A DNA stretch of 64,000 nt from Vicinamibacterales bacterium (GCA_036504215.1 DASXVO010000040.1:124001-188000), one strand, 5' to 3'. Positions 15,096 through 54,985 are shown, counted from the first letter of the stretch. The notes: generated from the sequence alone by a model not told the origin. Translations and numbers: made by a program.

Positions 15096-18673
<3,578 letters not shown>

Positions 18674-18677
<4 letters not shown>

Positions 18678-20209
18678 CGGCTAGGCTGAGAGTCTTCGTC
18701 AGCTCGGTTCAGAACGAACTGGAGGATGAACGCCTCATCGTCCAGAACCTGGTGAACACCGACGCGTTCCTTTCGTCCCATTGCGCACCGGTGCTCTACG
18801 AGTTCGAGCCCGCTTCCCCAGACCGGGCACTCGAGGGGTGCTTGACCGCGCTGAACACTTGCCAGGTGTACCTGCTCATCGTCGGGCTCCAATACGGCAC
18901 CATCGTCGACGGGTTGTCGATCACGCACGCCGAGTATCGCCGCGCCAAGGACCGCACGCTCCCGGTGCTGGCCTTCATCAAGGGGGACCGACGAGTCAAG
19001 CGCGAGCCGGGCACGACCGCTCTGCTCGACGAGCTCGACGCGGACGGCCCCAAGTACAAGCGCTTCGGGAACGTGATCGAACTGCAGAAGGAAGTCCGCG
19101 CAGCGCTGGTCAGGCTCCTCCGCGATCGGTTCGCGATCGCGCCCACGAGCGACGAGAACGAAACGGCCCATCAGACCATCGAGGCGACGTCTCCGTTCGA
19201 ATCCCGGCAGGTCGCTCGGATGCGGTGGCGAGATCTCGAGAGGGTTGTCGCGCGCCGACTCATCGGCGTGGCCGAGCAGCGCCAGCCGGACGGGATCTCC
19301 GACGAGGATCTCCTCACCGGCGTGTCTCTCCGCGGACTGGTGTGGCACGAGGCGTCGTCGGGGGAACATTACGCCACGGCCGCCGGGATCGTGCTCCTGG
19401 CACGTGATCCCTCGGCGGTCTTTCCTCAGTGCCGCATCCTGGCCGACGCGTATCGGGGCGCCGAACCGGACGGTGATCCTCGGGACCACGAGGATATCCG
19501 CGAGCCGATGCCGGTCGCCATTGAGCGCGCCCTGGCGTTCATCGATCGCAACACCCGGCATCCGATGCGCGTCGTTGGGCTCAATCGCGTCCGACTGGAC
19601 GAGTACCCGGCGTCCGGGCTGCGCGAGGCGCTCGTCAACGCCGTGGCCCACCGACAGTATGAGGACGCAGGGCGCAAGATCATGCTCGAGGTCTTTGCCG
19701 ACCGCGTCGTGGTATCGAGCCCCGGCCTGCCGCCGGCGCCCATCACGTTGGCGGCGTTGCGGAGAGGCAAGTACCGGCCTTGTTCACGCAACCCCGTTCT
19801 CGCGCAGTGCCTGTCCTACTTCCATCGGATCGAGGAGCGTGGCAGCGGGTTCCGCCGTATGCGCGACCAGATGCTCGACCACGGCCTCGATCAGCCGTTG
19901 CTCGGGACGGACACGGGCTATTTCCAGGTCACGTTCCCGGGACCGGGCGACAACATCGACCGCCTGCGAGTTCCAGAGAAGCAACTGCTGATCGGTCCCG
20001 CGGTGGAAACACAGCTCAATGAACGGCAGCGGAAGATGGCCGTGATGCTCGCCGAAGGCCAGGCGCTGACAAGCCGGCGATGTGAAGACGAGTTTGGTGT
20101 GACCCGAGACACCGCCGCGCGGGACTTCAACCTGTTGCTCGAGCTGGGCTTGGCCAGGAAGGAGGGGCGGGGACGTTCGACGAGGTACGTCCTCGGCTCC
20201 AGCGGCTAA
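18674..20209 (+). CDS. DUF4062 / histidine-kinase-type ATPase / HTH protein
   Basis: A 511-residue protein in three parts. Residues 1-110 are DUF4062: LRVFVSSVQNELEDER and a later LLIVGLQYG, then THAEYRRA, a fold related to TIR/nucleoside-processing domains. Residues about 190-430 resemble the RecG C-terminal-like/AlbA ATP-binding group: LREALVNAVAHRQY carries the E-x-x-x-N box near 318-322, followed by RVVVSSPGLPP and SGFRRMRDQM. The last 70 residues form a winged helix (SRRCEDEFGVTRDTAARDFNLLLELGL). The HTH and an operator-like repeat array right after its stop suggest a sensor-regulator of the module. DUF4062 might alternatively sense or cleave a nucleotide. Confidence 0.75.
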
Positions 20210-20317
20210 TCGTCAGATAATCGTCAGGCATCCGGCCCTAATCGTCAGATGTGCGGTTGGGCTGGGCAACCAAGCTAATCGTCAGCTAACCGTCAGACGA
20301 CGCACTGAAATCGTCAG
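20207..20317 (+). promoter_or_regulatory. six-copy TAATCGTCAG operator-like array
   Basis: Six copies of a 10-base motif, all in the same direction: exact TAATCGTCAG at 20207, 20218, 20239 and 20276; TAACCGTCAG at 20287; AAATCGTCAG at 20308. Start-to-start spacings are 11, 21, 37, 11 and 21, so the three-copy set repeats with a 69-base period. 11 and 21 bases are one and two helical turns, placing the sites of each set on one DNA face. The array starts at the stop codon of the DUF4062-HTH gene and ends 29 bases before the next possible start. It is most simply an operator for that HTH protein. Confidence 0.8.
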
Positions 20318-20345
20318 ATGCCCATGCTGAGTCCGGGAGCTCGCT

Positions 20346-21002
20346 ATGGCCGGGGCCCCTTCCGTCGCCAGCTGGGATGACGCGCGTCAGCTACGATTTC
20401 TCGGAGCTTCCATCGCGGGCAACCAGCCCGACCGAGCGCAACTGCGACCGAAGAGCGATGGGGTGGAGGCGGAGATGGCGGATGAGACATGGGCCGACAC
20501 GCTACGCGCAATCGATCAGGGTCTCGGGGAAGCTCTGAAGGCCCTCTACGAATCCCCGAACGCGAGCGACCTACGGCCCGAGTTGGGCAATCGCTTGTCT
20601 GAGATCAGGAGCCGGTGCGAAACGCTGTTTCATCGGCTGGTCTGGGAACCAACTGGGCGGTTGACGTCCGGCTTACCCCTTTCGCGAGAGCAGTACCACC
20701 TGTTGGCGGCACAGGGATGCACGTGGGCAGACAACAAGATGGTCGGTCTGTCGCCGTACACAGACTTCGAGGTCGCAGAGTTCTTCGATTACGAGGACGA
20801 AGAACGATCCTGCCGAATCGACCCCGCCCTTCCGCTTCCTCCGGGACAGATCAAACTCAAATTCGGAGTCTCTCCCGAGAAGCTCAGATTCAACGCACTT
20901 CGTCCCGAGCAGCGCCGCTTCTTCGAGGAGCACTTGCCAGAGGTCGCCGCGAGATTCGCGCGCGAAGCGCCGACGCCCCCTTCTGACAGAGGAGCGGAAT
21001 GA
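20346..21002 (+). CDS. hypothetical acidic protein in the methyltransferase module
   Basis: An unrecognised protein of 218 residues; it could instead start at 20475 (MADETWADTL, 175 residues), because the first 43 residues have no distinctive features. The body has helices (LGEALKALYE, GNRLSEIRSRCETLFHRLVWE), then PLSREQYHLLAAQG and an acidic block FDYEDEERSCR. The stop overlaps the methyltransferase start (ATGA), tying it to that gene. A small partner or inhibitor of the methyltransferase is a reasonable guess only. Confidence 0.55.
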   Translation: MAGAPSVASWDDARQLRFLGASIAGNQPDRAQLRPKSDGVEAEMADETWADTLRAIDQGLGEALKALYESPNASDLRPELGNRLSEIRSRCETLFHRLVWEPTGRLTSGLPLSREQYHLLAAQGCTWADNKMVGLSPYTDFEVAEFFDYEDEERSCRIDPALPLPPGQIKLKFGVSPEKLRFNALRPEQRRFFEEHLPEVAARFAREAPTPPSDRGAE

Positions 21003-23890
21003 CGAAGAAGCTCATCGAGGTGGCGCTGCCCCTCGACGCCATCAACGTGGCCTCGGCCCGCGAGAAGTCCATCCGGCACGGGCACCCGAGCACGTTGCAC
21101 CTGTGGTGGGCGCGTCGGCCGTTGGCAGCCGCGCGGGCGGTGATCTTCGCCCAGATGGTGGATGACCCTTCGGCCCATCCTGATCTCTTTCCAACCGAGA
21201 AGAAGCAGGAGAAGGAACGCCAGCGGCTGTTCGAAATCATCAAGGACCTGGTGAAGTGGGAGAACACCACCAACGAGGAGGTGCTGGAGGCCGCCCGGGC
21301 GGAAATCTGGCAGAGCTGGCGATACACCTGCGCGGAAAACGCTGACCACCCTCGGGCGAAGGAGCTGTTCGACCGCTACAAGCTGCCGGCGTTTCACGAT
21401 CCCTTTGCCGGCGGCGGTTCGCTGCCTCTCGAGGCGCAACGACTCGGGCTGGAGAGCTACGCGAGCGACCTGAACCCGGTGGCGGTCCTGATCAACAAGG
21501 CGATGATCGAGATCCCGCCAAAGTTCGCAGGCCGGCCACCGGTCAACCCCGACGTGCGCGCGGACAAGAGACTGTTCGACAGGAAGTGGAAGGACGCCGA
21601 AGGGCTCGCCGCGGACGTTCGCTACTACGGGAAGTGGATGCGCGACGAAGCCGAGAAGCGCATCGGCCACCTCTACCCGAAGATCGAGATCACCGCGGAG
21701 ATGGCGACGGAGCGCGACGACCTGAAGCCGCTTGTTGGCCAGAAGCTGACCGTGATCGCCTGGCTCTGGGCGCGAACGGTGAAGAGCCCAAATCCGGCGT
21801 TCGCGCATGTAGACGTCCCGCTCACCACGACGTTTACCCTCGGCATCAAGCCTGGCAAGGAAGCATTTATTGCGCCGGTCGTAGAGGGTGGCCGCTACCG
21901 CTTTTCCGTGAAGGTGGGTCAGCCAACGGACGCTGACGCGACGAAGAAGGGAACCAAGCTCACGGGTGCTAACTTCGTATGTCTAATGTCGGGAGCGCCG
22001 ATTGGGGGAGATTACATCAGGGCTGAGGCCAGGGCAGGGCGTATGGGCGAACGGCTGATGGCCACTGTCGCCGAAGGACACGGCTTCCGTGTCTACCTGA
22101 CGCCGAACGAGGCGGCCGAAGGCCTTGCGCGTCACGCAAAGCCAGTGTGGAAGCCTGACGTCGAGTTCTTTCAGCAGGCGCTCGGCTTTCGCGTAGGAAA
22201 CTATGGGATGACGAGGTGGAGCGACATCTTCACATCTCGCCAACTTGTGGCGCTGACGACGTTCGCCGACATGGTCCACGAGGCACGCGAACGAGTCCAG
22301 CGGGACGCGACGGCAGCGCGTCTCCCCGATGACGGCAAGCCCATCCTCGCCGGAGGCACCGGTGTTACCGCCTATGCTGACGCTGTCGCCACGTATCTCG
22401 GATTGGCGACGGCCCGGTACTCAAATGCGTGCTCGACCTTGTGCTCGTGGAATCCGGGGGAGAAGAAGGAGGACATTCGATTCACGTTCAGTCGGCAAGC
22501 GCTGTCCATGACTTGGGACTTCGCCGAGGGGAACCCGTTCAGTTCTTCCTCGGGTAACTTCTCGGACAACTTCGACACGTGGCTTTACAAAGCGCTGCTC
22601 TTTCTTCCTCACGCAACTGCACCTGGCACTGCAATTCAAGCCGATGCATCCTCTCAGGCTGTCTCCGTTGGGAAGGTGGTCTCGACCGACCCGCCGTACT
22701 ACGACAACATCGGCTACGCTGACCTGTCGGACTTCTTCTACATATGGCAGCGTCGGTCGCTGAACAGCATTCTGCCCGACATCTTCACGACACTTGCGGT
22801 CCCGAAGATCGAGGAATTGGTAGCCACCCCCCATCGCCACGGGAGCAAGGACAGTGCCGAGGCTTTCTTTCTTGCTGGCATGACCCAGGCGATGCATCGG
22901 CTCGCGGAGCAGTCTCATCCCGCATTTCCGGTCACGGTCTACTATGCCTTCAAGCAGGCTGAAAGCGACGATGCAGCAGGAACGGCGAGTACCGGCTGGG
23001 ACACGTTTCTAGAGGCAGTGATCCACGCGGGGTTCGCAATTACCGGCACGTGGCCGATGCGGACAGAGCGCGATGTTCGTGGCCGGGGCATCGGCAGTAA
23101 CGCCTTGGCGTCTAGCATTATCCTCGTCTGCCGCCACCGTGGGGCCACTGCACCGACCGCCACGCGTCGCGAGTTCACCTCCACGCTGAAGGCGGAACTA
23201 CCGACCGCCCTCGGTCTCCTGCAACGCGGAAACATCGCGCCCGTCGACCTCGCCCAAGCCGCCATCGGTCCCGGCATGGCGGTCTACACCCGGTATGCGA
23301 AGGTCCTCGATGCCGAGGGCAGGCCCTTGTCGGTTCGCGACGCGCTGGCGCTTATCAACCAAACCCTTGACGACGCGCTGGCCGAGCAAGAGGGCGACCT
23401 GGATGGCGACAGCCGCTGGGCGCTGGCGTGGTTCGAGCAGTCCGGCTTCTCGGAGGGCGATTTCGGCGTCGCGGATGTGCTCGCACGTGCAAAGAACACC
23501 GCAGTCCAGGGCCTGGTGGAGGCGGGCATTGTCGCGGCCGGCCGCGGGAAGGTGCGTCTCCTGAAGCCCAGCGAACTGCCGGACGACTGGGATCCTGCGA
23601 CGGACAAACGTCTGACGGCCTGGGAGATCGTGCACCACCTGATTCGAGTACTTGAAGCAGGTGGTGAAGGTGACGCTGCAACGCTGGCGGCGAAGCTCGG
23701 GAGCAAGGCAGAGACCGCGCGGGAGCTGTGTTACCGGCTCTACACCTTGTGCGAGCGCAAGAAACGAGCGCCCGAAGCGCTCGCCTACAACGCGCTGGTC
23801 CAGAGCTGGCCCGAGATCACGCGTCTCGCGCGCGAGAGCGGCAAGGTCGAGGCCGCAGAGCCGACGCTCTTTGGGGAGAACGAGGAATAG
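20999..23890 (+). CDS. DUF1156 adenine-type DNA methyltransferase
   Basis: A 963-residue methyltransferase. The N-terminus is DUF1156: LIEVALPLDAINVASAREK and HPSTLHLWWARRPLAAARA. AdoMet-binding motif I is HDPFAGGGSLPLEAQRLG (D134). Catalytic motif IV is TDPPYYDNIGYADL (DPPY at 564-567), as in N6-adenine/N4-cytosine amino-methyltransferases. The C-terminal 250 residues are helical, with GDFGVADVLARAKNT. Large DUF1156 methylases are found in DISARM-related and other anti-phage arrays, where they mark self DNA. It lies next to HEPN-DUF499 with a 3-base gap. Confidence 0.88.
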   Translation: MTKKLIEVALPLDAINVASAREKSIRHGHPSTLHLWWARRPLAAARAVIFAQMVDDPSAHPDLFPTEKKQEKERQRLFEIIKDLVKWENTTNEEVLEAARAEIWQSWRYTCAENADHPRAKELFDRYKLPAFHDPFAGGGSLPLEAQRLGLESYASDLNPVAVLINKAMIEIPPKFAGRPPVNPDVRADKRLFDRKWKDAEGLAADVRYYGKWMRDEAEKRIGHLYPKIEITAEMATERDDLKPLVGQKLTVIAWLWARTVKSPNPAFAHVDVPLTTTFTLGIKPGKEAFIAPVVEGGRYRFSVKVGQPTDADATKKGTKLTGANFVCLMSGAPIGGDYIRAEARAGRMGERLMATVAEGHGFRVYLTPNEAAEGLARHAKPVWKPDVEFFQQALGFRVGNYGMTRWSDIFTSRQLVALTTFADMVHEARERVQRDATAARLPDDGKPILAGGTGVTAYADAVATYLGLATARYSNACSTLCSWNPGEKKEDIRFTFSRQALSMTWDFAEGNPFSSSSGNFSDNFDTWLYKALLFLPHATAPGTAIQADASSQAVSVGKVVSTDPPYYDNIGYADLSDFFYIWQRRSLNSILPDIFTTLAVPKIEELVATPHRHGSKDSAEAFFLAGMTQAMHRLAEQSHPAFPVTVYYAFKQAESDDAAGTASTGWDTFLEAVIHAGFAITGTWPMRTERDVRGRGIGSNALASSIILVCRHRGATAPTATRREFTSTLKAELPTALGLLQRGNIAPVDLAQAAIGPGMAVYTRYAKVLDAEGRPLSVRDALALINQTLDDALAEQEGDLDGDSRWALAWFEQSGFSEGDFGVADVLARAKNTAVQGLVEAGIVAAGRGKVRLLKPSELPDDWDPATDKRLTAWEIVHHLIRVLEAGGEGDAATLAAKLGSKAETARELCYRLYTLCERKKRAPEALAYNALVQSWPEITRLARESGKVEAAEPTLFGENEE

Positions 23891-23893
23891 CCC

Positions 23894-26800
23894 ATGGCCA
23901 TCACCAACCACGAACGCGTCGGCAAGGCGCTGGATCTGCTGAAGGCCGGCCTGGGACCCTTCGTCGAGCGCGAGTTCGCGAGTGTCTATCAGGGACGGGC
24001 CGCGGCGGAGGCCGCTCGGTTCCTCGGCGACGACCGGCTCAACGCGAAGCGTCCGATTGCCGAATGGGACGCGGCGGCGCTCCTGAAGTTCATGTGGGAG
24101 ACGTGGAACGACGTCTTTCGCCGCACGCTGGGTCCCGCCGAACGGAGTCTCCTCTCTGAACTCCGCGACCACCGGAACAAGTGGGCGCACCAGCAGACGT
24201 TCTCGAGCGACGACGCCTATCGCGCGCTGGATTCTGCAGGGCGGCTGCTGGCCGCCGTGTCGGCGCCGCAATCGGACGAGATCGAACGAATCAAGATGGA
24301 GCTGCTGCGCCTGCGCTTCGATGAGCAGGTGCGCAGTGAGAAGCGCAAGACGGCCGGCATCGCGATCGAGAGCGCGACCACCGGCCTGCTGAAGCCCTGG
24401 CGTGAGGTCGTGACACCGCATCGGGACGTCGCGAGCGGCCTCTATCAGCAGGCGGAATTCGCGGCCGATCTCTGGCAGGTCCACCTCGGCGAGGGCACCG
24501 CGGAGTACAAGGACCCGGTCGAGTTCTTCCGCCGCACCTACCTGACGGAGAGCCTGAAGGCCATGCTCTCCGGAGCGGTTCGGCGTCTGGCCGGCAAAGG
24601 CGGCGACCCGGTCGTCCAGCTCCAGACGAACTTCGGCGGTGGCAAGACGCACTCGATGCTGGCGCTCTATCACCTCTTCTCCGGCATCGCGCCCAGCGAC
24701 CTGCCGGGAATCGACGTGGTGATGCAGGCGGCTGATGCCACGACGCTCGCGAGCCCACGTCGGGTGGTCCTGGTTGGCAACAAGATCTCGCCGGGCAATC
24801 CCGGCGTCAAGCCGGACGGCACAGTCGTCCGGACGCTTTGGGGAGAGCTGGCCTGGCAGCTCGGCGGCAAGAAGGCGTTCGCGCGGATTCAAGCCGACGA
24901 TGAGAAGGCGACGAGCCCGGGCGATGCGCTGCGCGAGTTGTTCAAGGAGTACGGGCCGTGCCTGATTCTGATCGATGAGTGGGTGGCCTACGCACGGCAG
25001 CTTCACGACCAGAGCGACTTGCCGGCCGGCGGGTTCGAAACCCAGTTCACCTTCGCCCAGGTGCTGACTGAGTCGGCCAAGCTGGCCAAGAACTGCCTCC
25101 TGGTCATCAGCCTGCCGGCTTCCGACACCACCGGCTCGCCCCACACCCAGGCCAACGACGTGGAGGTTGGTGGACAGCGTGGACGGGAGGCGCTCGATCG
25201 CCTGCGGAACGTCGTCGGGCGTCTCGAGTCGTCGTGGCGGCCTGCGAGCGCCGAGGAGGGTTTCGAGATCGTGCGTCGGCGTCTGTTCGAGCCACTGGCG
25301 ACCGATGCCCAGTTCAGGGACCGGGACGTGGTCGCGCGAGCGTTCGCCGACTTCTACCGCGCGCAGCACCAGGAGTTCCCCCCGGAATGCCGCGACGCCG
25401 AGTACGAGAAACGGATCAGGGCCGCCTATCCGATCCACCCGGAGATCTTTGACCGGCTCTACGCCGACTGGTCCACCCTGGTGAAGTTCCAGCGCACCCG
25501 GGGTGTGCTGCGCCTGATGGCCGCGGTGATCCACAGCCTGTGGGAAAAGGGGGACCGGAACCCGCTGATCCTCCCGGCGAACATCTCGATCGACGAGACG
25601 CGCGTGCAGTTCGAGTTGACGCGCTACCTGTCCGACAACTGGGTCCCGGTGATCGAGAAAGACGTGGACGGTCCGAACTCGCTCCCGTTGCGGATGGACG
25701 GGGAAGTGCCGAACCTCGGCAAACACGCCGCCTGCCGGCGCGTGGCGCGGACCATCTACCTGGGGTCGGCGCCGACCGCCGCTGCCGCTCACCGAGGCCT
25801 CGAGGATCGGCGGGTCAAGCTTGGATGCGTGATGCCTGGCGAGTCGCCCGCGGTGTTCGGCGATGCGCTGAGGCGGCTCGCCGGCGCGGCCACCTACCTC
25901 TATCAGGATGGTCCCCGCTATTGGTACTCGACGCAGCCCACGGTCACCAAACTCGCGGAGGACCGCGCCGAGCAGCTCAAGCGCGATCCCGACAAGGTGG
26001 TTCAGGAATTGGACCAGCGACTGCGCAGGGACTTGCAGCACAAGGGCGACTTCAGCCGCATCCATCCGATGCCGCAGTCGGGCCAAGACGTGCCGGATGA
26101 CCTCGACGCGAGGCTCGTCGTGCTCGGTGTCGACTATGCCTACACGAAGGAGCCAGGGAGCGCGGCCGAGACCAAGGCCCGGGCGATTCTGGAATCGCGC
26201 GGGGGAGCGCCGCGACTCTATCGCAATGCCCTGGTGGTCCTGGCGGCGGACAAGACGCGGCTTCAGGATCTCGACGAGGCGGTACGGCGCTTCCTCGCCT
26301 GGGAGTCCATCCTGGCGGAGAAAGTGGTTCTCAATCTCGATCCGCAGCAGGTCAAGCAGGCCGAGACTCAGAGAAGCGCGGCGGACGGCGCGGTGACGGC
26401 GCGGCTGCCCGAGACCTACCAGTGGCTCCTCGTGCCGGTGCAGTCGTCGCCGCAGGCGGCGATCGAATGGCAGGCGATTCGCCTGTCAGGCCAAGACCCG
26501 CTTGCCGTGCGCGCCAGCAAGAAGCTCCGCAGCGACGAACTGCTGCTCACCGGATTCGCGGCCACCCGGTTGAAGATGGAGCTCGACCGCGTGCCGCTCT
26601 GGCGCGGCAACCACGTGGCGATCAAGCAGCTCGTCGAGGACTTCGGCCGCTACCTCTATCTCCCTCGCCTCCGATCGTCCGCGGTGCTGACGGCGGCCAT
26701 TCAGGACGGCTGCGGTCTCCTGCTCTGGGAACAGGACTCGTTCGCGTACGCGGACAGCTACGACGAGGAGGCCGTGCGCTACCGGGGCCTTTGCGGAGGC

Positions 26801-27214
26801 AAGCAGATCGCGCTCCCGGATGCCGACTCATCCGGGTTGCTCGTGAGACCTGACGTCGCGCAGAAGCAGCTCGAAGCCGCCTCGCCTTCAGCCGGTCCAA
26901 CTCCGACAGGGCCAGGGCCGACGCCGCCAGGACCTACGCCTCCTGGACCGGGCCCGGCCCAACCCACACCGAAACAGGCTCCCAAGCGTTTCCATGGCTC
27001 CGTGAGGCTTGAAGCGGCTCGAGCCGGTCGTGACGCCAGCGTGATTGCCGACGAAGTGATCGCCCACCTCGCCGGTCTGGTGGGCGCGAAGGTGACCGTG
27101 ACGCTCGAAATCGAAGCCGAGATGCCAGGCGGCGCGCCGGAGACGGTGGTGCGAACGGTGACAGAGAACAGCCGGTCGCTGAAGTTCACGAGCCAAGGGT
27201 TCGAGACGGAGTAG
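23894..27214 (+). CDS. Swt1-type HEPN plus DUF499 ATPase
   Basis: An 1106-residue protein. The N-terminal 130 residues match Swt1-type HEPN: LLKAGLGPFVEREF, LLKFMWETWNDVFRRTLG, and the catalytic-like RNKWAH at 94-99. DUF499 follows: VTPHRDVASGLYQQAEFAADLW, then Walker A NFGGGKTHS (K251) and LILIDEWVAYARQL as Walker B. A Pro/Gly linker near 1000-1030 (PTPPGPTPPGPGP) leads to a small C-terminal domain. DUF499 ATPases pair with DUF1156 methylases in anti-phage operons, and the HEPN could give RNA-cleaving effector activity. It is the last gene of the module. Confidence 0.85.
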   Translation: MAITNHERVGKALDLLKAGLGPFVEREFASVYQGRAAAEAARFLGDDRLNAKRPIAEWDAAALLKFMWETWNDVFRRTLGPAERSLLSELRDHRNKWAHQQTFSSDDAYRALDSAGRLLAAVSAPQSDEIERIKMELLRLRFDEQVRSEKRKTAGIAIESATTGLLKPWREVVTPHRDVASGLYQQAEFAADLWQVHLGEGTAEYKDPVEFFRRTYLTESLKAMLSGAVRRLAGKGGDPVVQLQTNFGGGKTHSMLALYHLFSGIAPSDLPGIDVVMQAADATTLASPRRVVLVGNKISPGNPGVKPDGTVVRTLWGELAWQLGGKKAFARIQADDEKATSPGDALRELFKEYGPCLILIDEWVAYARQLHDQSDLPAGGFETQFTFAQVLTESAKLAKNCLLVISLPASDTTGSPHTQANDVEVGGQRGREALDRLRNVVGRLESSWRPASAEEGFEIVRRRLFEPLATDAQFRDRDVVARAFADFYRAQHQEFPPECRDAEYEKRIRAAYPIHPEIFDRLYADWSTLVKFQRTRGVLRLMAAVIHSLWEKGDRNPLILPANISIDETRVQFELTRYLSDNWVPVIEKDVDGPNSLPLRMDGEVPNLGKHAACRRVARTIYLGSAPTAAAAHRGLEDRRVKLGCVMPGESPAVFGDALRRLAGAATYLYQDGPRYWYSTQPTVTKLAEDRAEQLKRDPDKVVQELDQRLRRDLQHKGDFSRIHPMPQSGQDVPDDLDARLVVLGVDYAYTKEPGSAAETKARAILESRGGAPRLYRNALVVLAADKTRLQDLDEAVRRFLAWESILAEKVVLNLDPQQVKQAETQRSAADGAVTARLPETYQWLLVPVQSSPQAAIEWQAIRLSGQDPLAVRASKKLRSDELLLTGFAATRLKMELDRVPLWRGNHVAIKQLVEDFGRYLYLPRLRSSAVLTAAIQDGCGLLLWEQDSFAYADSYDEEAVRYRGLCGGKQIALPDADSSGLLVRPDVAQKQLEAASPSAGPTPTGPGPTPPGPTPPGPGPAQPTPKQAPKRFHGSVRLEAARAGRDASVIADEVIAHLAGLVGAKVTVTLEIEAEMPGGAPETVVRTVTENSRSLKFTSQGFETE

Positions 27215-27473: not shown

Positions 27474-29894
27474 ATGGGAAATGACCTTCTGGCCCTATTC
27501 GCGCCGGCCGGTGCGGCTCTGACCGTTCCGAACAAGCCCGTTCGCGCGGTTGGGATTGATCTCGGCACGACGAATTCCACGCTGGCAGAAGTGACGTGGA
27601 TGCCCGGACAGAGGGAGTTTCCGAGCGCCCGCTGCGTAGAAGTAGAGCAAGAGACACTGGAAGGGGTGGCCATTCACACGCTGGTACCCTCAATTGTGGC
27701 GTTCCACGATGGTCGCATGTGGGTTGGGGAGGGAGCCAAGCGATTGCGGGCGAGGGCAGCAGAACTGCAACTGCGCCAGGAGCAGAACCTCTTCTATGAC
27801 TGCAAGAACGACATGGGGGTTCGGAAGACCTACCACCGGGCGCCCGAAGGCTGCCGTAGCGCTGCGGAGGTGGGAGGGCAGGTTCTTCGTTTCCTGAACG
27901 GCTGCGCCGCGAAGGGGGCCGGCGAGCCGGTCAGCCGTGCGGTGGTCACCGTTCCCGCTTCGTTTCAGGCCGCCCAGCGCAAAGACACGCGCGATGCAGC
28001 CTCCAGGGCGGGCATGAACATCAAGGGCGGTGACCTCCTCGACGAGCCGGTGGCCGCCTTTCTCGACTACCTGGTCGGTCACCGCGAGACCTTCGCCGGC
28101 CAGTTGACTGGGCCGAAGAACCTCCTGGTGTTCGACTTCGGCGGTGGCACGTGCGACGTGGCAGTGCTCGCGGTGCAACCGCTCGATCAGGACAGGCTTG
28201 CCGTCTCCCCCAGAGCAGTGTCTCGCTACCATCGGTTGGGCGGCGGGGACATCGATGCGGCAATCCTCTACGAGGTGTTGCTGCCCCAGTTGCTCGAGCA
28301 GAACCCCCTCCCGGGTTTCTCGCCTGGCTTCACCGAAAAGAAGAAGCTCATCGAGCCGGCGCTGCTCGGAATTGCGGAAGCCCTGAAGATAGGGCTCTCA
28401 ATTCAGATCAGGCGGCTTCGCAGCTTCGGAAAGTACGAGACTGCGGACAAGACGCAGATCGTCAAAGTCGTCTCCGGTCAACATCCCTGCAAGGTGGGAG
28501 ACCACAGACTTCTCCTCCAGTCCCCTTCACTGTCAGCCGCCCAGTTTGAAGCCCTACTCAAGCCATTCCTGGACCGGGATTCCCTGACCGCGGTCGATAC
28601 CGAGTACAGGATGACCGCGTCGGTCTTCGCGCCGCTGGACGACGCACTGAACCGAGCCGAATTGAATCGAGGCGACATCGACTTCTGCTTGCTCGTCGGC
28701 GGGAGCACGCTGATACCACAGGTCGAAGACGCGATCCGCGGCTACTTCGTCAATGCGAAGCTGTTGACCTACGAAGGTTCGGACGCCGCCCAGACAGCAG
28801 TCGCCAGAGGTGCCGCCTACCATGCCTTGTCTCTTGCCCTCTTCGGGGTTGGCCTGATTCAACCGGTCTGTCAGGACGACATCTCCATCAGGACGACGTC
28901 TGGTTTGGTGACGCTCGTCCGCAGGGGCACGCGACTTCCGTTTCCGCCGGCGGATGAGTTCGAGAAAGTAACTAGCATTGCTGTCCCAGAATCGGTGCTC
29001 GTCGGAAACTGTGACGTCAAAGTGGAACTCCTCGCGTCGCACGGAGGCGTCAGCCGGACACTTCTCGATGCCTGCTTTGCCGTACCGGGGCCTGTGAACG
29101 AGGGGACTCCCCTGCTTTTGGAATACCGGTACGACCAGAACCAGGTGTTCGACGTGAAGCTGTCGGTCCGAGGGACCGATGCGGCGTTCGACGCCCGGAT
29201 CGAGAGCCCACTCACCAATGTCGTGAATCCCCAGGTTGATCGTCTGAAGATCGCGGAGACCGAGGAGAACCTTCGGCTCGGAAGAGTCGAACGTCATCTC
29301 GTGCCCGATACCTTCGCCGAACTGGCTGGAGCCTACGGCAAGATCGGACAGCATGAGAAGGCGATTGACTACCTGCGCCAGGCCATTCGACAGAGAGGAC
29401 GACCAGACAGCTGGTTGTTGGACAGGTTGGCCGGAGAATATGCAGCGCTCGGGGATGTCGAACGAGCGGAGCGGTTCTACCTCGAAGCGTCGAGATGCTC
29501 CGGTAGCGGAGGCTCGCTCTTCAACCTCTCGCTGTACCAGCATCGTCGCGGGGAAGTGACAAAGGCCGGGGAGAACATCGACGAGGCCCTTAGACGCGAC
29601 CGGAGTGCGCCCTACCTTGTTCAGAAAGCCAGGGTCGCAGATGCGATGGGGGATGCTGTCACCAAGGCGGCGTGTCTGACGGAGGCTCTGACCGCCTTTG
29701 GACAGAACTTGCGGGCGCTGGATGATTGGCGGTTGGCTTGGCTCCAGACCGCAGCTGGGATGCAGGGGGACCGGGAGGCCGAACTGCGGGCACAACAAGA
29801 GCGACAACGACGACTTCAAGGCGAACCCGCAGGGGACCTCGGTGGCAAGCTGCCAATTCTCCTGCCTGCGCTGGAGAGGGGCGGTGCGGCATGA
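27474..29894 (+). CDS. Hsp70-like ATPase with TPR tail
   Basis: An 806-residue Hsp70-family protein. Nucleotide-binding motifs are AVGIDLGTTNS, AVVTVPASFQAAQR, LVFDFGGGTCDVAVL and LLVGGSTLIP. The usual DnaK substrate domain is replaced by a beta-rich part (about 470-600), and the C-terminus (about 610-770) has TPR-like helices (TFAELAGAYGKIGQHEKAIDYL; GEYAALGDVERAERFYLEASR). No DnaJ or GrpE lies nearby. GGAGAG precedes ATG 27474. The stop overlaps the UvrD-like gene (ATGA). Hsp70 homologues fused to TPR and placed beside a helicase are not housekeeping chaperones; a defence sensor or remodelling ATPase is likely. Confidence 0.82.
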   Translation: MGNDLLALFAPAGAALTVPNKPVRAVGIDLGTTNSTLAEVTWMPGQREFPSARCVEVEQETLEGVAIHTLVPSIVAFHDGRMWVGEGAKRLRARAAELQLRQEQNLFYDCKNDMGVRKTYHRAPEGCRSAAEVGGQVLRFLNGCAAKGAGEPVSRAVVTVPASFQAAQRKDTRDAASRAGMNIKGGDLLDEPVAAFLDYLVGHRETFAGQLTGPKNLLVFDFGGGTCDVAVLAVQPLDQDRLAVSPRAVSRYHRLGGGDIDAAILYEVLLPQLLEQNPLPGFSPGFTEKKKLIEPALLGIAEALKIGLSIQIRRLRSFGKYETADKTQIVKVVSGQHPCKVGDHRLLLQSPSLSAAQFEALLKPFLDRDSLTAVDTEYRMTASVFAPLDDALNRAELNRGDIDFCLLVGGSTLIPQVEDAIRGYFVNAKLLTYEGSDAAQTAVARGAAYHALSLALFGVGLIQPVCQDDISIRTTSGLVTLVRRGTRLPFPPADEFEKVTSIAVPESVLVGNCDVKVELLASHGGVSRTLLDACFAVPGPVNEGTPLLLEYRYDQNQVFDVKLSVRGTDAAFDARIESPLTNVVNPQVDRLKIAETEENLRLGRVERHLVPDTFAELAGAYGKIGQHEKAIDYLRQAIRQRGRPDSWLLDRLAGEYAALGDVERAERFYLEASRCSGSGGSLFNLSLYQHRRGEVTKAGENIDEALRRDRSAPYLVQKARVADAMGDAVTKAACLTEALTAFGQNLRALDDWRLAWLQTAAGMQGDREAELRAQQERQRRLQGEPAGDLGGKLPILLPALERGGAA

Positions 29895-31135
29895 GCTGGT
29901 TGGTGGCTCCAGAGGAGCTCACGCCAGACCAGAGCCGGGCCATCGCGTTGGAGCCAAGCGAGCATCGGGCGATCATCGGCGGTCCTGGTTCGGGGAAGAC
30001 CCAGATTTTGCTCTACCGGGCGCAGTTCCTGGCTCGGAAATACCACGTTCCTCCGAATCGCTTCCACATCTTCGTCTACACCAACGTCCTTAAGTCGTAC
30101 ATACGCACGGCGCTCAACTACCTGGACTTGCCGCTCGATTGCGTGTCCACACTGGACGGTTGGTGCAAGACCTATTTTCAGACCCACATCGGTGGTCGGG
30201 TGCCGTGGGACGCCCAAGCGAAGAGGCCTGACTTCGACGCCATCCGAAATGCCATCCTTCAGCGGACCTACTCGAATCTGCTGCACGAGCCGGCCTTCGA
30301 TTTCGTCCTGGTGGATGAGGGGCAGGACCTCGACCGACCTGCCTTCGAGTTGCTCTCTCGACTGAGCAAACATGTGACGGTCTGCGCGGACCGAAAACAG
30401 CAGATCTACGACCGCGGGTCCGAGGAACGGGAGATTCTGACGGCGCTCGGCCTCCGAAGCGGCAGCGTTGCCTTCCTTGACGCCTATCGGTGCTGTCCGT
30501 ACATCACACAGCTCGCCGCTTCCCTTCTAGACGACCCGGTTGAACGCACCCGCTACCTACGCCAGGTCAGGACCACCCAAACAGAACGAGAAAAGCCTCT
30601 CCTCTATCTCGCCCAGGACTTTGAGGACGAGAAGAAGCGCCTGGTTGAAATCGTGCGAAGTAGGCAGGTCAAGGGCGAGAGGATCGCGATTCTCTTTGGC
30701 GCGCAACGCCAGATCCACGGGTTTGCCAAAGGGCTTCGCGAGCAAGGCCTCGAAGTGGAGATACAGGAAGAAGCCGACTTCTCGTCGGATCTACCGAAGC
30801 TGATCACGTATCACAGCGCCAAGGGGCTGACGTTCGACACGGTGTTGCTTCCGCGGCTCGTCGGCCGTTCTTTCCCGTATCTCACGGACCGTCGGCTTGC
30901 CAGCCTGCTCTTCGTGGGCGTCACCCGCGCCGTGAAATGGGTCTACATGAGTACGACGGAAGATGGACAGCAGTTGCGTTCGGTTCTAGAACGAGTAATC
31001 CCCCTGGCGGACGGTGGAGGCCCGTTGGTAGTTCAGCGTGGTCGTGCCGCTGCCGGCATCCAGAAGTCGCTCTTTGGTTCGGGAACGCCCGATTCACGCG
31101 CGGGAGATACGGACGACATCCTGGATCCCCTATAG
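29891..31135 (+). CDS. UvrD/Rep-like SF1 helicase-type protein, compact
   Basis: A 414-residue protein with Walker A IIGGPGSGKTQIL (K36), Walker B FVLVDEGQDLD (142-146), DAYRCCPYI, then HSAKGLTFDTVLLP and FVGVTRAVKWVYM as the C-terminal SF1 motifs. It is short for UvrD (about 700 residues) because the 1B and 2B insertions are missing, so it may not unwind DNA processively. The start overlaps the Hsp70 stop (ATGA). Likely works with the Hsp70-like and DUF4011-helicase proteins. Confidence 0.82.
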   Translation: MSWLVAPEELTPDQSRAIALEPSEHRAIIGGPGSGKTQILLYRAQFLARKYHVPPNRFHIFVYTNVLKSYIRTALNYLDLPLDCVSTLDGWCKTYFQTHIGGRVPWDAQAKRPDFDAIRNAILQRTYSNLLHEPAFDFVLVDEGQDLDRPAFELLSRLSKHVTVCADRKQQIYDRGSEEREILTALGLRSGSVAFLDAYRCCPYITQLAASLLDDPVERTRYLRQVRTTQTEREKPLLYLAQDFEDEKKRLVEIVRSRQVKGERIAILFGAQRQIHGFAKGLREQGLEVEIQEEADFSSDLPKLITYHSAKGLTFDTVLLPRLVGRSFPYLTDRRLASLLFVGVTRAVKWVYMSTTEDGQQLRSVLERVIPLADGGGPLVVQRGRAAAGIQKSLFGSGTPDSRAGDTDDILDPL

Positions 31136-31142
31136 CCGCACC

Positions 31143-34100
31143 ATGGCGCAATTGACCGCAGGGAGTCGTCTTCCAGGGAACAGCAGCGAGAATCGAATGG
31201 AGCCATCCGTCAATACATACGTGGACCAGGCTCGCCAGGGCTGGATTAGAAAACTCATCGATCTGTCCAGACGCAACAACCTGCTGTACTTCCGGGACCT
31301 TCAAACGGGCACCGTCGACATCAGTTCGGCCCCGAATGGAAGCTTGGCGAGGTTGCTCGAGTGGCACGCGCCTGGCGAGGAACTCGGCTCAGTGCCGCTG
31401 CTCGACCTCGTTTCCGAGGACGACGAGAAGAGCGTCGCTGGAAAACTGCGTGACATCAAGCGTCGCACGATTGCGAACTACGAAGAACGAGGACTGGAGA
31501 CACTGTTCCTGGCCCTTGGCCTTGCGACTTGGATTCCCCGCGATGATGGTCGTCCGGCATCGGCGCCTGTGCTGTTGATGCCAGTAGACCTGACTTCGCG
31601 AGGACGCGAGGGGCGGTACTGGCAGGTCCGCCGAACGGGGGAGATCCAGGTGAATCCCGTTCTCCTCTTCGCGCTGGAAGCCGAGCACGGGCTGATAGTG
31701 ACGCCTGAGCAGATCATCAAGGAGATCCAAGGCGACGAGGAAGGCGAGGCATTCGATCTCAACCCCGCGTTTGACCGGCTTTCTGGGCTTGCCGCGAAGG
31801 TCAGCGGGTTCGCCGTCGAACGGCGATGGGTCATCGGGAACTTCTCGTTCCAGAAGATGGCCATCGTCAAGGATTTGAAGGAACGCATCGGGGAGATGTC
31901 GGGCAACGCGATCATCGCCGGAATTGCCGGCGATCCCAAGGCACGCGAACTGGCCAGGGGAATGCGGACGGAGCCAGACGCGACCAAGTTCGATACGAAC
32001 TCTCCCGAGGCAGAATTCCTGGTGCTGACGGCCGACTCGACCCAACAGAAGGCGGTTGCTGCGACGCTCAGCGGCCAAAACGGCGTGATTAGTGGCCCGC
32101 CAGGGACGGGGAAGAGCCAGACGATCGCGAACCTCATCGCCGAGTTGGCTGCGAGGGGAAAGTCCGTCCTCTTCGTAGCCGAGAAGCGAGCGGCGTTGGA
32201 CGTGGTCCTTCATCGCCTGAAGGAAGTTGGTCTACTGCACCTGTGCCTCGACCTCCATGGAGCAGATGTCTCTCGTCGCCACATTCGAGACCAGATGGCG
32301 GAGAGTCTGGAGCTGCACAGGACGACGGCCGTGCCCGACGCGGCGGAAATGCACCGCAAGTTTATGGACCGGCGTGGCCGCCTGAACGGCCACGTCAGGG
32401 CCCTACACCAACGCCGGGAACCGTGGGGTGTGAGCGCGTATCAGATTCAAGGGCAACTTCTACGGCTGCCCGCGGGCGTGAGCACGCCCGTTCGATGGTC
32501 AGAGAAGGCACTGCAAGGATTCACCAGGGAACGAGTGGAACTGATCCGCGACACGCTCCGCGAGGCAGCGGGCTTCGCGCCGTTCTTCCGTCCTGGGCAT
32601 CCCTCTCCTTGGGCGACGGCGTGGCTGCCGGATGAGCAGGCTGTCCGCACCGCAATGGAGCGGTCGACGCGACTCGCACGCGAGACGTGGCCGAGGTTGG
32701 CCGAGGCCCTGCGGAAGATGTCCGCCGCCTGCTCGCTACTTCCTCCAGCCACCTGGCGAGATCTAAGGGAGACGGTACGTCTTGTTGAGGATGTCAACGA
32801 CGTCCTCGGAGTTTACCGGCAAGAGGTCTTCGGGACCGAGTTGGACAGCCTGCTTCGTGATCTCGAGCCGTCCGCGTCGCTCGGCAGGCACATCACCGCC
32901 AGTCTGTTCAATGGCGCTTACAGGTCCGCGCGAAAACGGGCGAAGGCGCTCCGGATTGGCGGTCCGGCATCTGCCGCTGCACAACTCGAGGAGTTGGGTC
33001 GGCTTCCAGGCATCCTCGCTCGATGGAAGGCGCGGTGCTCTGGCGCCGATCTACCGACTGGTTGTGAGGCCGCCGCCTTGGTCCGACAGTGTCTCTCGAA
33101 TGTGGAAGCAGACCTGCTGCCCATGGCGGAGACATTTCCGCTCTTGGTGTTGGACCTGCTTGAGGTCTCCCCCTTGGAGGCCTGGCTAGCGATGCTGGCG
33201 GAAGATCGCGGCACACCATTCCAGCGATTCCGGTGTTGTCAGCTTGAGATTGTTCTTCGCGGCAACGACGCAGGCTGCCTCCTTCCGCACCTCCGAAATC
33301 CGAAGTCCGATCCGGCGAAGTGGCCCGATTTGTTCCAGCATGCCTGGCTCTCTTCATGCCTGGAAGCGATCCACATCAAGGAACCCGGACTGGCGGGGTT
33401 CAACGGTAGAACGCACGAGCAGTTCGTCAGCGAGTTTCGTCAGTTGGACGAGGAACGTATTCGGACCGCGGTCGCGAGAGTACGACGGGCGTGTGCGGAG
33501 AAGGCGATTGAGACACGAAACCTGCACTCGGACCAGGACGCGATCGTCTGCCGAGAGGCACAGAAGAAGTCCAGACATCTACCGCTGCGTACCCTGTTCG
33601 CCCAGGCTCCGGAGGTGCTGCTGGCACTGAAGCCCTGTTGGATGGCCAGTCCGCTGTCGGTGAGTCAGTTGCTCCCAGCCGAACGGCCCTACTTCGACGT
33701 GGTCCTCTTCGATGAGGCGAGCCAGGTGCTTCCCGAAGACGCCGTGGCCTCGCTCTTGCGGGGGCGCCAAGCCGTTGTAGCTGGAGACAAGCACCAACTC
33801 CCGCCCACCACCTTCTTTGCGACCGGTACCGGGGACGACGAGAGCGGCGACGAGGCCGGAGCGACCGAGGGCTTCGAGAGCATCCTTGACCTCATGTCGT
33901 CGTTTCTCGAGCCTCCCTGGTCGTTGGACTGGCACTACAGGAGTCGCGACGAGTCACTCATCGCCTTCTCCAACCACCACATCTACGGCGACCGCCTGGT
34001 GACGTTTCCGGGTCCTGGTGTCGCGTCTTCGATTTCGCACGTCTTGGTAAACGGCTCAGGGCGAGAGGGCGAAGAAGAGAGTTGCAGCGCCGAGGTAAGC

Positions 34101-35219
34101 AAGATCATCGGAATGGTCCTGTGGCACGCCGAACACCGGCCATTCGAATCACTCGGCGTCATCACCATGGGCATCAAGCACGCCCAGCGGCTGGAGGCGG
34201 CCCTGGATAAGGCCCGTCAGTCCAGACCCGACTTGGACGAGTTCTTCAACCCGGAGGCTGCCGAACGCTTCTTCGTGAAGAACCTGGAGCGTGTTCAGGG
34301 CGATGAGCGGGACGCTATCATCCTGAGCATCGGCTACGGAAAGGACTCGTCTGGTCGCCTGCCGTATCGATTCGGCCCGCTGCTCAGCCAGGGTGGTGAG
34401 CGGCGGCTGAACGTCGCTATTACCCGAGCGAGGAAGAGCCTGGCGTTGGTCTCCTCGTTCTCCCATCTCGATATGGCCCCCTCGCGTAGCAAGGCGAAGG
34501 GGGTGGAGCTTCTGCGCGCCTACCTGGAATACGCGTCGAGTGGCGGCAGCCGGCTGGGCGGAGACGGCAGCCGAGAGGTGCCTCTGAACGACTTCGAGCA
34601 GGCGGTCTTCGACGCACTGACCGCCCACGGCGTGAAACTGCTTCCGCAATACGGCACGTCTTGCTACCGCCTCGATATGGTCGCCCAGCATCCGCGGCAG
34701 GAAGGGCGTCTCGTGTTGGCCATCGAGTGTGACGGCGCGACCTACCACTCAGCGCCGACGGCCCGGGATCGAGACCGACTCCGCCAACAGCACCTGGAGG
34801 CGCTTGGCTGGAACTTCCACCGCATCTGGTCGACCGACTGGTTCATGCGTCAAGACGAGGAGATCCAGCGGACGATGACCGCGTACGAGCGGGCGGTTGA
34901 GCGTGCGGACCGCGGCGGAGGCGGGCTGCCACAGCCCGCTCCGGGGAACGGAAGGCCAAAGGAACCTGAGGAACCCACACCTGGCAATAGTGTGCAGGAA
35001 CGTTCGCCTCGACCTTCCATTGCTCGCAAAGCGAACATCGCGGAGTACTCCGATGGTGACCTTCGCCGACTCCTGAAGTGGATTCTGGAAGGCGAGTTGC
35101 TCACGGACGACGAAGTTGTCGAGCGAGCGGTTGGGGAACTGGGATTTCAACGACGTGGCAGCCGGATTGAAGCGGCGCTTCGGCGAGTCATACCGGAGGC
35201 TCGAAGGGCTCTACGGTGA
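31143..35219 (+). CDS. DUF4011, SF1 helicase and Vsr-like endonuclease (Hhe-like)
   Basis: A 1358-residue protein. DUF4011 is at the N-terminus (GWIRKLIDLSRRNNLLYFRD). The SF1 helicase has Walker A GPPGTGKSQTIANL (K324), VVLFDEASQVLPEDA (857 on), GDKHQLPPT, and late RLNVAITRARKSL. A Vsr/MTES_1575-type nuclease follows near 1195 (AIECDGATYHSAPTARDRDR, then FHRIWSTDWF), with a DUF3320-like tail (LLKWILEGELLTDD). The DUF4011-helicase-Vsr order is that of the Hhe anti-phage protein. ATG 31143 lies 7 bases after the UvrD stop; an in-frame ATG at 31197, beginning MEPSVNTYV, is an equal candidate because DUF4011 starts only after it. Confidence 0.86.
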   Translation: MAQLTAGSRLPGNSSENRMEPSVNTYVDQARQGWIRKLIDLSRRNNLLYFRDLQTGTVDISSAPNGSLARLLEWHAPGEELGSVPLLDLVSEDDEKSVAGKLRDIKRRTIANYEERGLETLFLALGLATWIPRDDGRPASAPVLLMPVDLTSRGREGRYWQVRRTGEIQVNPVLLFALEAEHGLIVTPEQIIKEIQGDEEGEAFDLNPAFDRLSGLAAKVSGFAVERRWVIGNFSFQKMAIVKDLKERIGEMSGNAIIAGIAGDPKARELARGMRTEPDATKFDTNSPEAEFLVLTADSTQQKAVAATLSGQNGVISGPPGTGKSQTIANLIAELAARGKSVLFVAEKRAALDVVLHRLKEVGLLHLCLDLHGADVSRRHIRDQMAESLELHRTTAVPDAAEMHRKFMDRRGRLNGHVRALHQRREPWGVSAYQIQGQLLRLPAGVSTPVRWSEKALQGFTRERVELIRDTLREAAGFAPFFRPGHPSPWATAWLPDEQAVRTAMERSTRLARETWPRLAEALRKMSAACSLLPPATWRDLRETVRLVEDVNDVLGVYRQEVFGTELDSLLRDLEPSASLGRHITASLFNGAYRSARKRAKALRIGGPASAAAQLEELGRLPGILARWKARCSGADLPTGCEAAALVRQCLSNVEADLLPMAETFPLLVLDLLEVSPLEAWLAMLAEDRGTPFQRFRCCQLEIVLRGNDAGCLLPHLRNPKSDPAKWPDLFQHAWLSSCLEAIHIKEPGLAGFNGRTHEQFVSEFRQLDEERIRTAVARVRRACAEKAIETRNLHSDQDAIVCREAQKKSRHLPLRTLFAQAPEVLLALKPCWMASPLSVSQLLPAERPYFDVVLFDEASQVLPEDAVASLLRGRQAVVAGDKHQLPPTTFFATGTGDDESGDEAGATEGFESILDLMSSFLEPPWSLDWHYRSRDESLIAFSNHHIYGDRLVTFPGPGVASSISHVLVNGSGREGEEESCSAEVSKIIGMVLWHAEHRPFESLGVITMGIKHAQRLEAALDKARQSRPDLDEFFNPEAAERFFVKNLERVQGDERDAIILSIGYGKDSSGRLPYRFGPLLSQGGERRLNVAITRARKSLALVSSFSHLDMAPSRSKAKGVELLRAYLEYASSGGSRLGGDGSREVPLNDFEQAVFDALTAHGVKLLPQYGTSCYRLDMVAQHPRQEGRLVLAIECDGATYHSAPTARDRDRLRQQHLEALGWNFHRIWSTDWFMRQDEEIQRTMTAYERAVERADRGGGGLPQPAPGNGRPKEPEEPTPGNSVQERSPRPSIARKANIAEYSDGDLRRLLKWILEGELLTDDEVVERAVGELGFQRRGSRIEAALRRVIPEARRALR

Positions 35220-35261
35220 CTTGGAAGCCACCGTGCGCTGGCTGAGACGGAAGAACACGAC

Positions 35262-35609
35262 ATGGCATTAGGAGGACGGCTGGCGGTCGACGTCGAGGAA
35301 TTGCGCCAAGCGTTGACCTTTCTCAAGGCCGCCAAACGTGGCGGAGGGAGCGTCACCCTCTCCTTCCGGGCGGGCGGCCTCGAGATCAGCCGAGGCCTCT
35401 CAGTAACCCGCGCGTCGGCTACTGGTTCCTGGACCGGCACGACGGAGGTCCCGCTCAAGCCACTGGCCGGTTGCGCGGATGTCGCGAGCCGAGAGGGAGC
35501 AGCCAAATTGAGGGTCGAGGCACGCGGCGAGGACTTGGTCCTGACATTTGGCCCGGCGGGCGAAAGCCGCAGAACTTCTATGTCCGTCCAGGCGCAGTGG
35601 TTCCAGTAG
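35262..35609 (+). CDS. small beta-rich hypothetical protein
   Basis: A 115-residue protein without a recognised family: a short helix VDVEELRQALTFLKAAKR, then alternating strands and turns (GGSVTLSFRAGGLEIS; TGTTEVPLKPLAGCADVA; KLRVEARGEDLVLTFG). The helix-then-strands order, with L-x-I and L-x-L pairs, is loosely like one domain of a DNA sliding clamp, but no PIP or catalytic feature is seen. It starts 42 bases after the helicase-nuclease and probably belongs to that operon. Confidence 0.6.
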   Translation: MALGGRLAVDVEELRQALTFLKAAKRGGGSVTLSFRAGGLEISRGLSVTRASATGSWTGTTEVPLKPLAGCADVASREGAAKLRVEARGEDLVLTFGPAGESRRTSMSVQAQWFQ

Positions 35610-37671: not shown

Positions 37672-38074
37672 TGGAAACGTCTCCAGATGCCGTGACGCTG
37701 CGCCCGAAGGCAGGTTTCCGTGCGTCGCCGGCTAAGGTCAGATGCCCGATTCCGCTAACATCGCCGCAGCCAACCCCCTTGGTGAAAGACGCGGATCGGT
37801 TCCGAATGGACGTCCCGCCTGTGACCCACCCTGTCAGACGGCTCGGATACGGTTCCAATGAGGCCGCGAACGACTCCCATCGCAGCCAATCGACGGAGTC
37901 GTACTGCGCGTTGTGCGTATTGCGGATTCTCGCGGCCTACCGGAAGGCAATCCTGAGACCGACACTTGGGATAACCAGGTTCTCGACTAAGAAGTCGGCG
38001 AACGCCCGATAGTCGATGCGCCGGGCTGACCAACTTGCGCGTTGGAAGGCCGTTCTTCAGACGACGTGTGGCAC
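37672..38074. other. intergenic region, no gene seen
   Basis: An open frame covers most of it (37668-38012) but has no family resemblance and an uneven composition. A small hairpin CGACT-AAGA-AGTCG lies at 37984-37997. It likely carries the promoter of the following trio; no clear -35/-10 pair is seen. Confidence 0.35.
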
Positions 38075-51979: not shown

Positions 51980-52066
51980 CCTATGGCGAACGCCGGGAGT
52001 CGAGGGCGAATTGAGGCGCCCTCCAAGCCGTCCTCCCTTGGGCGCTCCCGAACAGGGAGGTATCCA

Positions 52067-53524: not shown

Positions 53525-53572
53525 CGCCGACTCACTGGCCTGGTAACCACAAGAGCGCACGAGATCGACGGA

Positions 53573-54835: not shown

Positions 54836-54856
54836 GGTCTCTGCTCTGTCGGACGT

Positions 54857-54885
54857 TTGCCAGGGCGTCCCAGCGAGAGTATCTT
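54857..54885 (+). promoter_or_regulatory. predicted promoter of the Gabija pair
   Basis: TTGCCA (54857-54862), 17 bases, TATCTT (54880-54885), about 100 bases before gajA and just after the preceding stop. Spacing and match support a sigma70-type promoter. Confidence 0.42.
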
Positions 54886-54985
54886 GCTTCCGCACTCGCG
54901 ACCTCTTCGTTCGGTTGCTGTCTCCAGCAATGACGAATTCAAGCCTGAAGGGAACGAAGCGCGCGCCCATGCCAGGGAAACTGAA

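What the first reader, a model, noticed from the sequence alone, without database searches (positions are those of the whole stretch)
27474..35609. Hsp70-TPR, compact UvrD and DUF4011-helicase-Vsr in one operon
Hhe-type DUF4011-helicase-Vsr proteins are known as stand-alone defence proteins. Here one is coupled to an Hsp70-like ATPase with a TPR tail instead of a normal substrate domain, and to a short SF1 ATPase, with a 115-residue protein after it. An Hsp70 as a gatekeeper or sensor of a nuclease would be new to me. The overlaps are seen directly; joint function is inference.
Basis: partly seen in the sequence, partly recalled or inferred. Interest (0 to 1): 0.78.

Follow-up and report, generated by a model that had tools for sequence, protein, structure and literature searches.

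The report
Conserved Hsp70-TPR and mini-UvrD gene pair
Across many bacterial phyla a chaperone-like protein (Hsp70 with a TPR tail) is encoded together with a small DNA-helicase-like motor, often near known anti-virus genes, which makes the two-gene pair a good candidate for an undescribed defence module; the nuclease beside it in this genome is a chance neighbour.

Summary
The genes are there, but the unit is drawn wrongly. The Hsp70-TPR (27474-29894) and the compact UvrD-like ATPase (29891-31135) form a real, conserved two-gene cassette. UvrD is the next same-strand gene in 23 of 28 Hsp70-TPR loci, 14 of them with a 4-bp overlap, in at least nine named phyla. In 396 same-phylum genomes Hsp70-TPR occurs in 9 and this UvrD in 10, 9 shared (p=1.7e-17). 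Their divergences are correlated (r=0.75-0.91). The DUF4011-helicase-nuclease follows the pair only in this window (1 of 23) and its two nearest same-phylum relatives lack the pair, so the 'triad' is not supported. The Hsp70 keeps all NBD motifs and, by a confident model, a substrate-binding beta domain; only the alpha lid is replaced by TPRs. UvrD is a stripped SF1A core without 2B, ending in a disordered tail with a conserved acidic-hydrophobic tip. The pair lies beside a complete Hma system here, and beside DISARM, type IIG/SNF2 or Hachiman genes elsewhere, but about half of the loci show no defence neighbour. Best reading: a mobile chaperone-gated motor, probably anti-phage or anti-plasmid; mechanism inferred. 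Neither PADLOC nor the held papers describe it.

The parts
27474..29894 (+). Hsp70-TPR (806 aa): NBD 23-457, SBDbeta-like 469-577, TPR 588-781, C-terminal GxLP motif
   Evidence: Pfam HSP70 2.2e-33 and TPR hits; AlphaFold2 model pLDDT 86.5; DnaK Z 33-36; invariant K111, E191, D221, T226
29891..31135 (+). Compact UvrD-like SF1A ATPase (414 aa), no 2B subdomain, disordered tail 387-414 with conserved tip
   Evidence: Pfam UvrD_C 6.7e-16; model pLDDT 84.4, UvrD-DNA Z 35; ATGA overlap with Hsp70 stop; next gene in 23 of 28 loci
31143..35219 (+). DUF4011-SF1 helicase-MTES_1575 nuclease; PADLOC PDC-S37, related to Hhe/ProA. Judged a separate neighbour, not part of the unit
   Evidence: absent next to the pair elsewhere; its relatives lack the pair
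35262..35609 (+). 115-aa ORF of unknown family, not part of the conserved unit
   Evidence: no family in PADLOC, Pfam or NCBIfam; no homologue beside the DUF4011 relatives
15096..27214 (+). Complete Hma system upstream: hmaA 15096-18677, embedded genes 18674-21002, hmaB 20999-23890, hmaC 23894-27214; context, not part of the pair
   Evidence: PADLOC HmaA 1717 bits, HmaB 1528, HmaC 1162; about 260 bp between hmaC stop and Hsp70 start

Best explanation
A mobile, two-gene module: an ATPase-competent Hsp70 whose lid is replaced by TPRs, plus a stripped-down SF1A (UvrD/PcrA-type) DNA motor. Shown: the two genes are co-inherited as a unit across many phyla, both keep their catalytic motifs, and the unit is often found with restriction/defence systems. 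Inferred: the Hsp70-TPR binds and gates the motor. In the resting cell it would hold UvrD through the TPR array, perhaps via the conserved acidic-hydrophobic C-terminal tip of UvrD. On infection, client binding to the SBDbeta (for example unfolded or over-produced phage protein) would trigger ATP hydrolysis and release or load the motor onto invading or replicating DNA, stripping proteins or unwinding intermediates. Neither protein carries a recognised nuclease domain, so any cleavage would come from other systems. It works as its own unit, not as part of the DUF4011 nuclease.
For: Co-occurrence: Hsp70-TPR in 9 and UvrD in 10 of 396 same-phylum genomes, 9 shared, Fisher p=1.7e-17. UvrD is the next same-strand gene in 23 of 28 loci, 14 with a 4-bp overlap. 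Distance-matrix correlation r=0.75 (core) to 0.91 (all), 0 of 5000 permutations. NBD catalytic residues invariant; SF1 motifs invariant or nearly so. Model: DnaK-like NBD+SBDbeta, then TPR; UvrD-like core, Z 35. UvrD tail disordered yet its tip conserved: last residue L/F/I in 19 of 19, acidic at position -6 in 13 of 19. Defence context: Hma (window), DISARM drmD/drmMI (L022/L023), type IIG MTase with SNF2 (L013, L049; the MTase also in L027), Orf5/HEC-06 with IIG MTase (L025), Hachiman HamB (L036); Hma fragments and type III-like Mod/Res beside members without UvrD (L024, L039). Leave-one-out defence hits in 6 of 28 Hsp70-TPR locus groups against 0 of 60 control loci, nearly all DnaK genes.
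Against: About half of the loci with readable flanks show no defence gene among those scanned; neighbours include gyrase, glycosyltransferase, outer-membrane and radical-SAM genes. No nuclease, toxin or membrane effector is encoded in the pair. Binding between the two proteins was not modelled. Five Hsp70-TPR members lack UvrD next door (L024, L033, L038, L039, L044). The defence query set was drawn from these loci, leave-one-out only, and L027 and L049 are related loci.
Confidence: 0.5

Rival explanations
1. A stress or repair module: the Hsp70-TPR remodels stalled nucleoprotein complexes and the compact UvrD clears or translocates DNA after damage. Defence-island location would be incidental to its mobility.
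For: UvrD/PcrA-type core is closest to repair helicases; about half of the loci lack a defence neighbour; no nuclease in the pair.
Against: Patchy distribution (9 of 396 genomes, none among the other same-order genomes listed) and spread over unrelated phyla fit a mobile accessory trait better than housekeeping repair; repeated restriction-system neighbours.
Confidence: 0.25
2. Accessory to multi-gene modification-based systems (Hma, DISARM, type IIG-SNF2): the Hsp70-TPR assembles or recycles their large complexes and UvrD assists their helicases.
For: Neighbours are repeatedly SNF2-helicase plus methylase systems; Hma lies directly upstream here.
Against: The partner system changes from locus to locus and is absent in many; a 260-bp gap separates hmaC from the pair; the neighbour in L036 is Hachiman, which has no methylase.
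Confidence: 0.15
3. One reading: Hsp70-TPR gates the DUF4011-helicase-nuclease, with UvrD as helper.
For: Tight same-strand spacing in this genome (7 bp).
Against: DUF4011 follows the pair in only 1 of 23 loci; the two nearest same-phylum relatives of the DUF4011 protein have no Hsp70-TPR or UvrD nearby; DUF4011 nucleases of this class are listed as single-gene candidates (PDC-S37).
Confidence: 0.05
4. Chance neighbours without joint function.
For: All are island genes that move often.
Against: Co-occurrence p=1.7e-17, conserved order, 4-bp overlaps, correlated divergence.
Confidence: 0.02

Closest known systems
DnaK/Hsp70 chaperones
   Same: Complete NBD with phosphate motifs and catalytic K, E, D, T; SBDbeta-like sandwich; DnaK with Z 33-36
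   Different: Alpha lid replaced by a TPR array; 121 bits against the 648-bit NCBIfam DnaK cut-off; encoded beside a helicase gene
CoCoNuT CnuD/CnuCD Hsp70-like proteins (PMC11090510)
   Same: Hsp70 NBD/SBD unit used in a predicted prokaryotic defence operon
   Different: The paper reports degenerate Walker-A-like motifs and HEAT-like repeats, fused to or encoded with McrC homologues beside the McrB-like GTPase; here NBD motifs are intact, TPR instead of HEAT, partner is a UvrD, and no McrB or McrC was seen
Gabija (GajA-GajB)
   Same: Two-gene pair with a UvrD-like SF1 ATPase; GajB is the nearest defence model in PADLOC and appears among the PDB sequence matches
   Different: No GajA (OLD ATPase-TOPRIM nuclease); the partner is an Hsp70; UvrD here is shorter
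Hhe / ProA / PDC-S37 (DUF4011-helicase-nuclease)
   Same: Neighbour gene at 31143-35219 is of this class
   Different: It is not part of the conserved pair and scores below the Hhe and ProA cut-offs

Membership tests
Hsp70/DnaK superfamily | Actin-like NBD with IDLGTT, GGGT and catalytic K/E/D/T | tested here: met
Hsp70/DnaK superfamily | SBDbeta substrate sandwich | tested here: met
   model residues 469-577 aligned through DnaK SBDbeta, e.g. 7krv_B 471 residues at 2.8 A; peptide binding itself not tested
Hsp70/DnaK superfamily | SBDalpha helical lid and DnaK equivalog score | tested here: not met
   TPR helices follow SBDbeta directly; 121 of 648 bits: Hsp70-related, not DnaK
UvrD/PcrA SF1A helicase | Walker A, DExQ, motif V/VI of SF1 | tested here: met
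UvrD/PcrA SF1A helicase | 1B and 2B subdomains | tested here: not met
   414 aa with only a short stretch at the 2B position and a reduced 1B region; UvrD chains in the comparison are about 650 aa
Gabija | GajA OLD-type ATPase-TOPRIM partner | tested here: not met
   partner is Hsp70-TPR
CoCoNuT | McrB-like GTPase and McrC (DUF2357) homologue in the operon | tested here: not met
   none among the window genes scanned around the pair, 12.9-49.5 kb
Hhe | NCBIfam Hhe model over its cut-off | tested here: not met
   neighbour protein 647 of 2000 bits; ProA 952 of 1500; the DUF4011 domain itself is met
Hma | hmaA, hmaB, hmaC in one operon | tested here: met
   upstream genes 15096-27214; the pair lies outside, after hmaC
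Anti-phage defence system | Protection against phage or plasmid | not testable with these tools
   only island association

The most novel reading that the evidence does not exclude
A new kind of immune sensor: an Hsp70 that detects infection through client (misfolded or over-produced phage) proteins and uses its ATP cycle, through a TPR arm, to unleash a dedicated minimal SF1 motor on invading DNA.
Probability: 0.2. Interest if true: 0.88.

Novelty: new variant of a known kind. Interest (0 to 1): 0.6.

Why it matters
If the pair is a defence module, a chaperone ATPase would be a direct immune regulator of a DNA motor, and protein-folding state would be a possible infection signal in bacteria. 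It also removes a false lead: nothing ties the DUF4011 nuclease to the Hsp70. The pair is short (about 3.7 kb), so it can be tested directly in a laboratory strain.

Tried and rejected
DUF4011-Hsp70 coupling: rejected by 1 of 23 and by the two DUF4011 relatives without the pair. Plasmid search for Hsp70-TPR at E<=1e-60: no match. Viral contigs: one close relative, L110 (46%), ending 124 bp after the match, so UvrD could not be checked; the rest are distant Hsp70s. The genes after Hsp70 in L024 and L033 were tested as an alternative partner family: unrelated to each other. Promoter and terminator scans gave nothing beyond shuffles. Literature: no paper on an Hsp70-UvrD defence pair in the held library; the BREX survey, the archaeal survey and the PADLOC paper do not mention Hsp70; subscription journals are not covered.

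Full report
Observation. The window is part of a 5.92-Mb genome in 90 contigs. On the + strand there is an ORF of 806 aa with Pfam HSP70 and TPR matches (27474-29894), a compact UvrD-like ORF (29891-31135), a DUF4011-helicase-MTES_1575 ORF (ATG 31143, end 35219) and a 115-aa ORF (35262-35609). The Hsp70 stop and the UvrD start share ATGA. UvrD and DUF4011 are 7 bp apart and do not overlap if ATG 31143 is used. Upstream is a complete Hma system and downstream other island genes including QatABCD.

Is the coupling real? A search for the Hsp70-TPR in 396 genomes of the same phylum found it in 9, at 41-52% identity for the near full-length matches outside the own genome. The same-sized draw searched with the UvrD found 10 genomes, 9 of them the same; Fisher p=1.7e-17. 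A scan of named genomes gave further members in Neomarinimicrobiota, Bacteriovoracaceae, Hydrogenedentota, Acidobacteriota, Anaerolineales, Bacillota, Smithellaceae, Armatimonadetes, Proteobacteria, Gemmataceae and, as divergent forms, Bacteroides/Prevotella; several are short MAG contigs, so single assignments may be wrong. Counting the window, 28 loci have at least 700 bp after the Hsp70 gene; in 23 the next same-strand gene is this UvrD, in 14 of them with a 4-bp overlap (L025, L035 with a 350-bp gap at a contig end). Exceptions are L024, L033, L038, L039 and L044. The Hsp70 and UvrD distance matrices correlate at r=0.91 for all pairs and 0.75 for the core set, with 0 of 5000 permutations as high.

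DUF4011 is different. It follows the pair only in the window. One other locus, L013, has a DUF4011 relative at 29% identity about 11 kb away and divergently transcribed. The two closest DUF4011 relatives in 297 same-phylum genomes have neither Hsp70-TPR nor this UvrD nor the 115-aa ORF in the 20 kb fetched; both are interrupted or fragmentary genes. PADLOC already lists such proteins as the candidate PDC-S37. The triad is therefore not supported.

What the proteins are. The AlphaFold2 model of Hsp70-TPR (18-sequence alignment, mean pLDDT 86.5) has an NBD at 23-457, a beta-sandwich at 469-577 and TPR helices at 588-781. Structural alignment runs through NBD and SBDbeta of DnaK (7krv_B, 471 residues, 2.8 A, Z 33.5). 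So the peptide-binding half of the substrate domain is kept and only the lid is exchanged. K111, E191, D221 and T226, which by alignment match the catalytic residues of DnaK (correspondence from knowledge of the family), are invariant; this separates it from the CoCoNuT Hsp70-like CnuD, described as having degenerate Walker-A-like motifs (PMC11090510). The UvrD model (pLDDT 84.4) matches UvrD-DNA complexes at Z 35 over 381 residues, but it has 414 residues against about 650 and lacks 2B. Residues 387-414 are disordered, yet the last residue is L, F or I in 19 of 19 and position -6 is acidic in 13 of 19. Conservation of a disordered tip suggests a short binding motif. That it binds the TPR array of its partner is my inference; SSB-type acidic tips and sliding-clamp motifs look similar (from memory, not tested) and are alternatives.

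Context. Restriction or defence genes lie near the pair in the window (Hma, PDC-S37, Qat), L013 (type IIG with SNF2), L022/L023 (DISARM drmD and drmMI), L025 (IIG-type methylase and Orf5/HEC-06), L027 and L049 (IIG-type methylase, NERD-UvrD; SNF2 helicases in L049) and L036 (HamB of Hachiman). Hsp70-TPR members without UvrD sit near Hma fragments (L024) and type III-like Mod/Res genes (L039). With defence queries from other loci only, 6 of 28 Hsp70-TPR locus groups and 0 of 60 control loci (nearly all DnaK genes) have a hit. This query set is not independent of the loci. About half of the loci with readable flanks show none; some neighbours are ordinary metabolic, envelope or replication genes. 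Defence is thus likely but not certain.

Mechanism. The anatomy suits a chaperone-gated motor: a client-binding ATPase with a protein-protein arm, paired with a minimal translocase that has a conserved docking-like tail. Steps shown: pairing, motif integrity, domain architecture, recurrent island location. Steps inferred: physical interaction, gating by ATP and client, action on foreign DNA. Rivals are repair/stress (0.25) and an accessory role in methylation-based systems (0.15).

Novelty. PADLOC has no model that matches the Hsp70. The held literature names no Hsp70-UvrD defence pair. This is limited to open papers. I rate it a new variant of a known kind (a two-gene SF1-helicase defence candidate), with a categorically new reading not excluded.

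Noticed in passing
window 18674-21002: A DUF4062 + HATPase_c_4 gene and a 218-aa ORF are embedded between hmaA and hmaB, as in Hma-embedded candidates.
   Followed up: partly
window 23894-27214: HmaC carries an N-terminal HEPN_Swt1 domain (Pfam 4.3e-37) ahead of the DUF499 ATPase part matched by PADLOC HmaC.
   Followed up: no
window 38042-44375: 444-aa unknown, PLD-like and SNF2-like helicase genes in a row, weakly like DrmC/ZacB and PDC-M27C/ZacC; may be a further uncharacterised system.
   Followed up: no
window 51983-56785: Ankyrin-repeat gene, REase-ARP nuclease and OLD-like TOPRIM ATPase in tandem after QatABCD.
   Followed up: no
L038:9920-13015: Hsp70-TPR fused to a response-regulator receiver domain, without UvrD: hints at phospho-signalling input.
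   Followed up: partly
L041, L042, L043: Bacteroidota version: divergent Hsp70-TPR, divergent UvrD, a 387-522-aa third gene of unknown family, and in L042/L043 a short TerB-like gene (Pfam match in L042; L043 homologue).
   Followed up: partly
L013:1-1723 and L149:9800-10806: In genome G219 the UvrD gene is split between two contig ends that carry transposase-like sequence, so it is probably broken by an insertion element; in L016 the UvrD frame ends after 110 aa.
   Followed up: partly
L148:7339-8022: A UvrD of this subfamily without Hsp70-TPR nearby (genome G093), next to an AI-2E transporter gene.
   Followed up: partly
window 29891-31135: Structural neighbours of the compact UvrD include human Schlafen helicase domains (SLFN11, Z about 26) and RNA-polymerase-binding HelD.
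   Followed up: no
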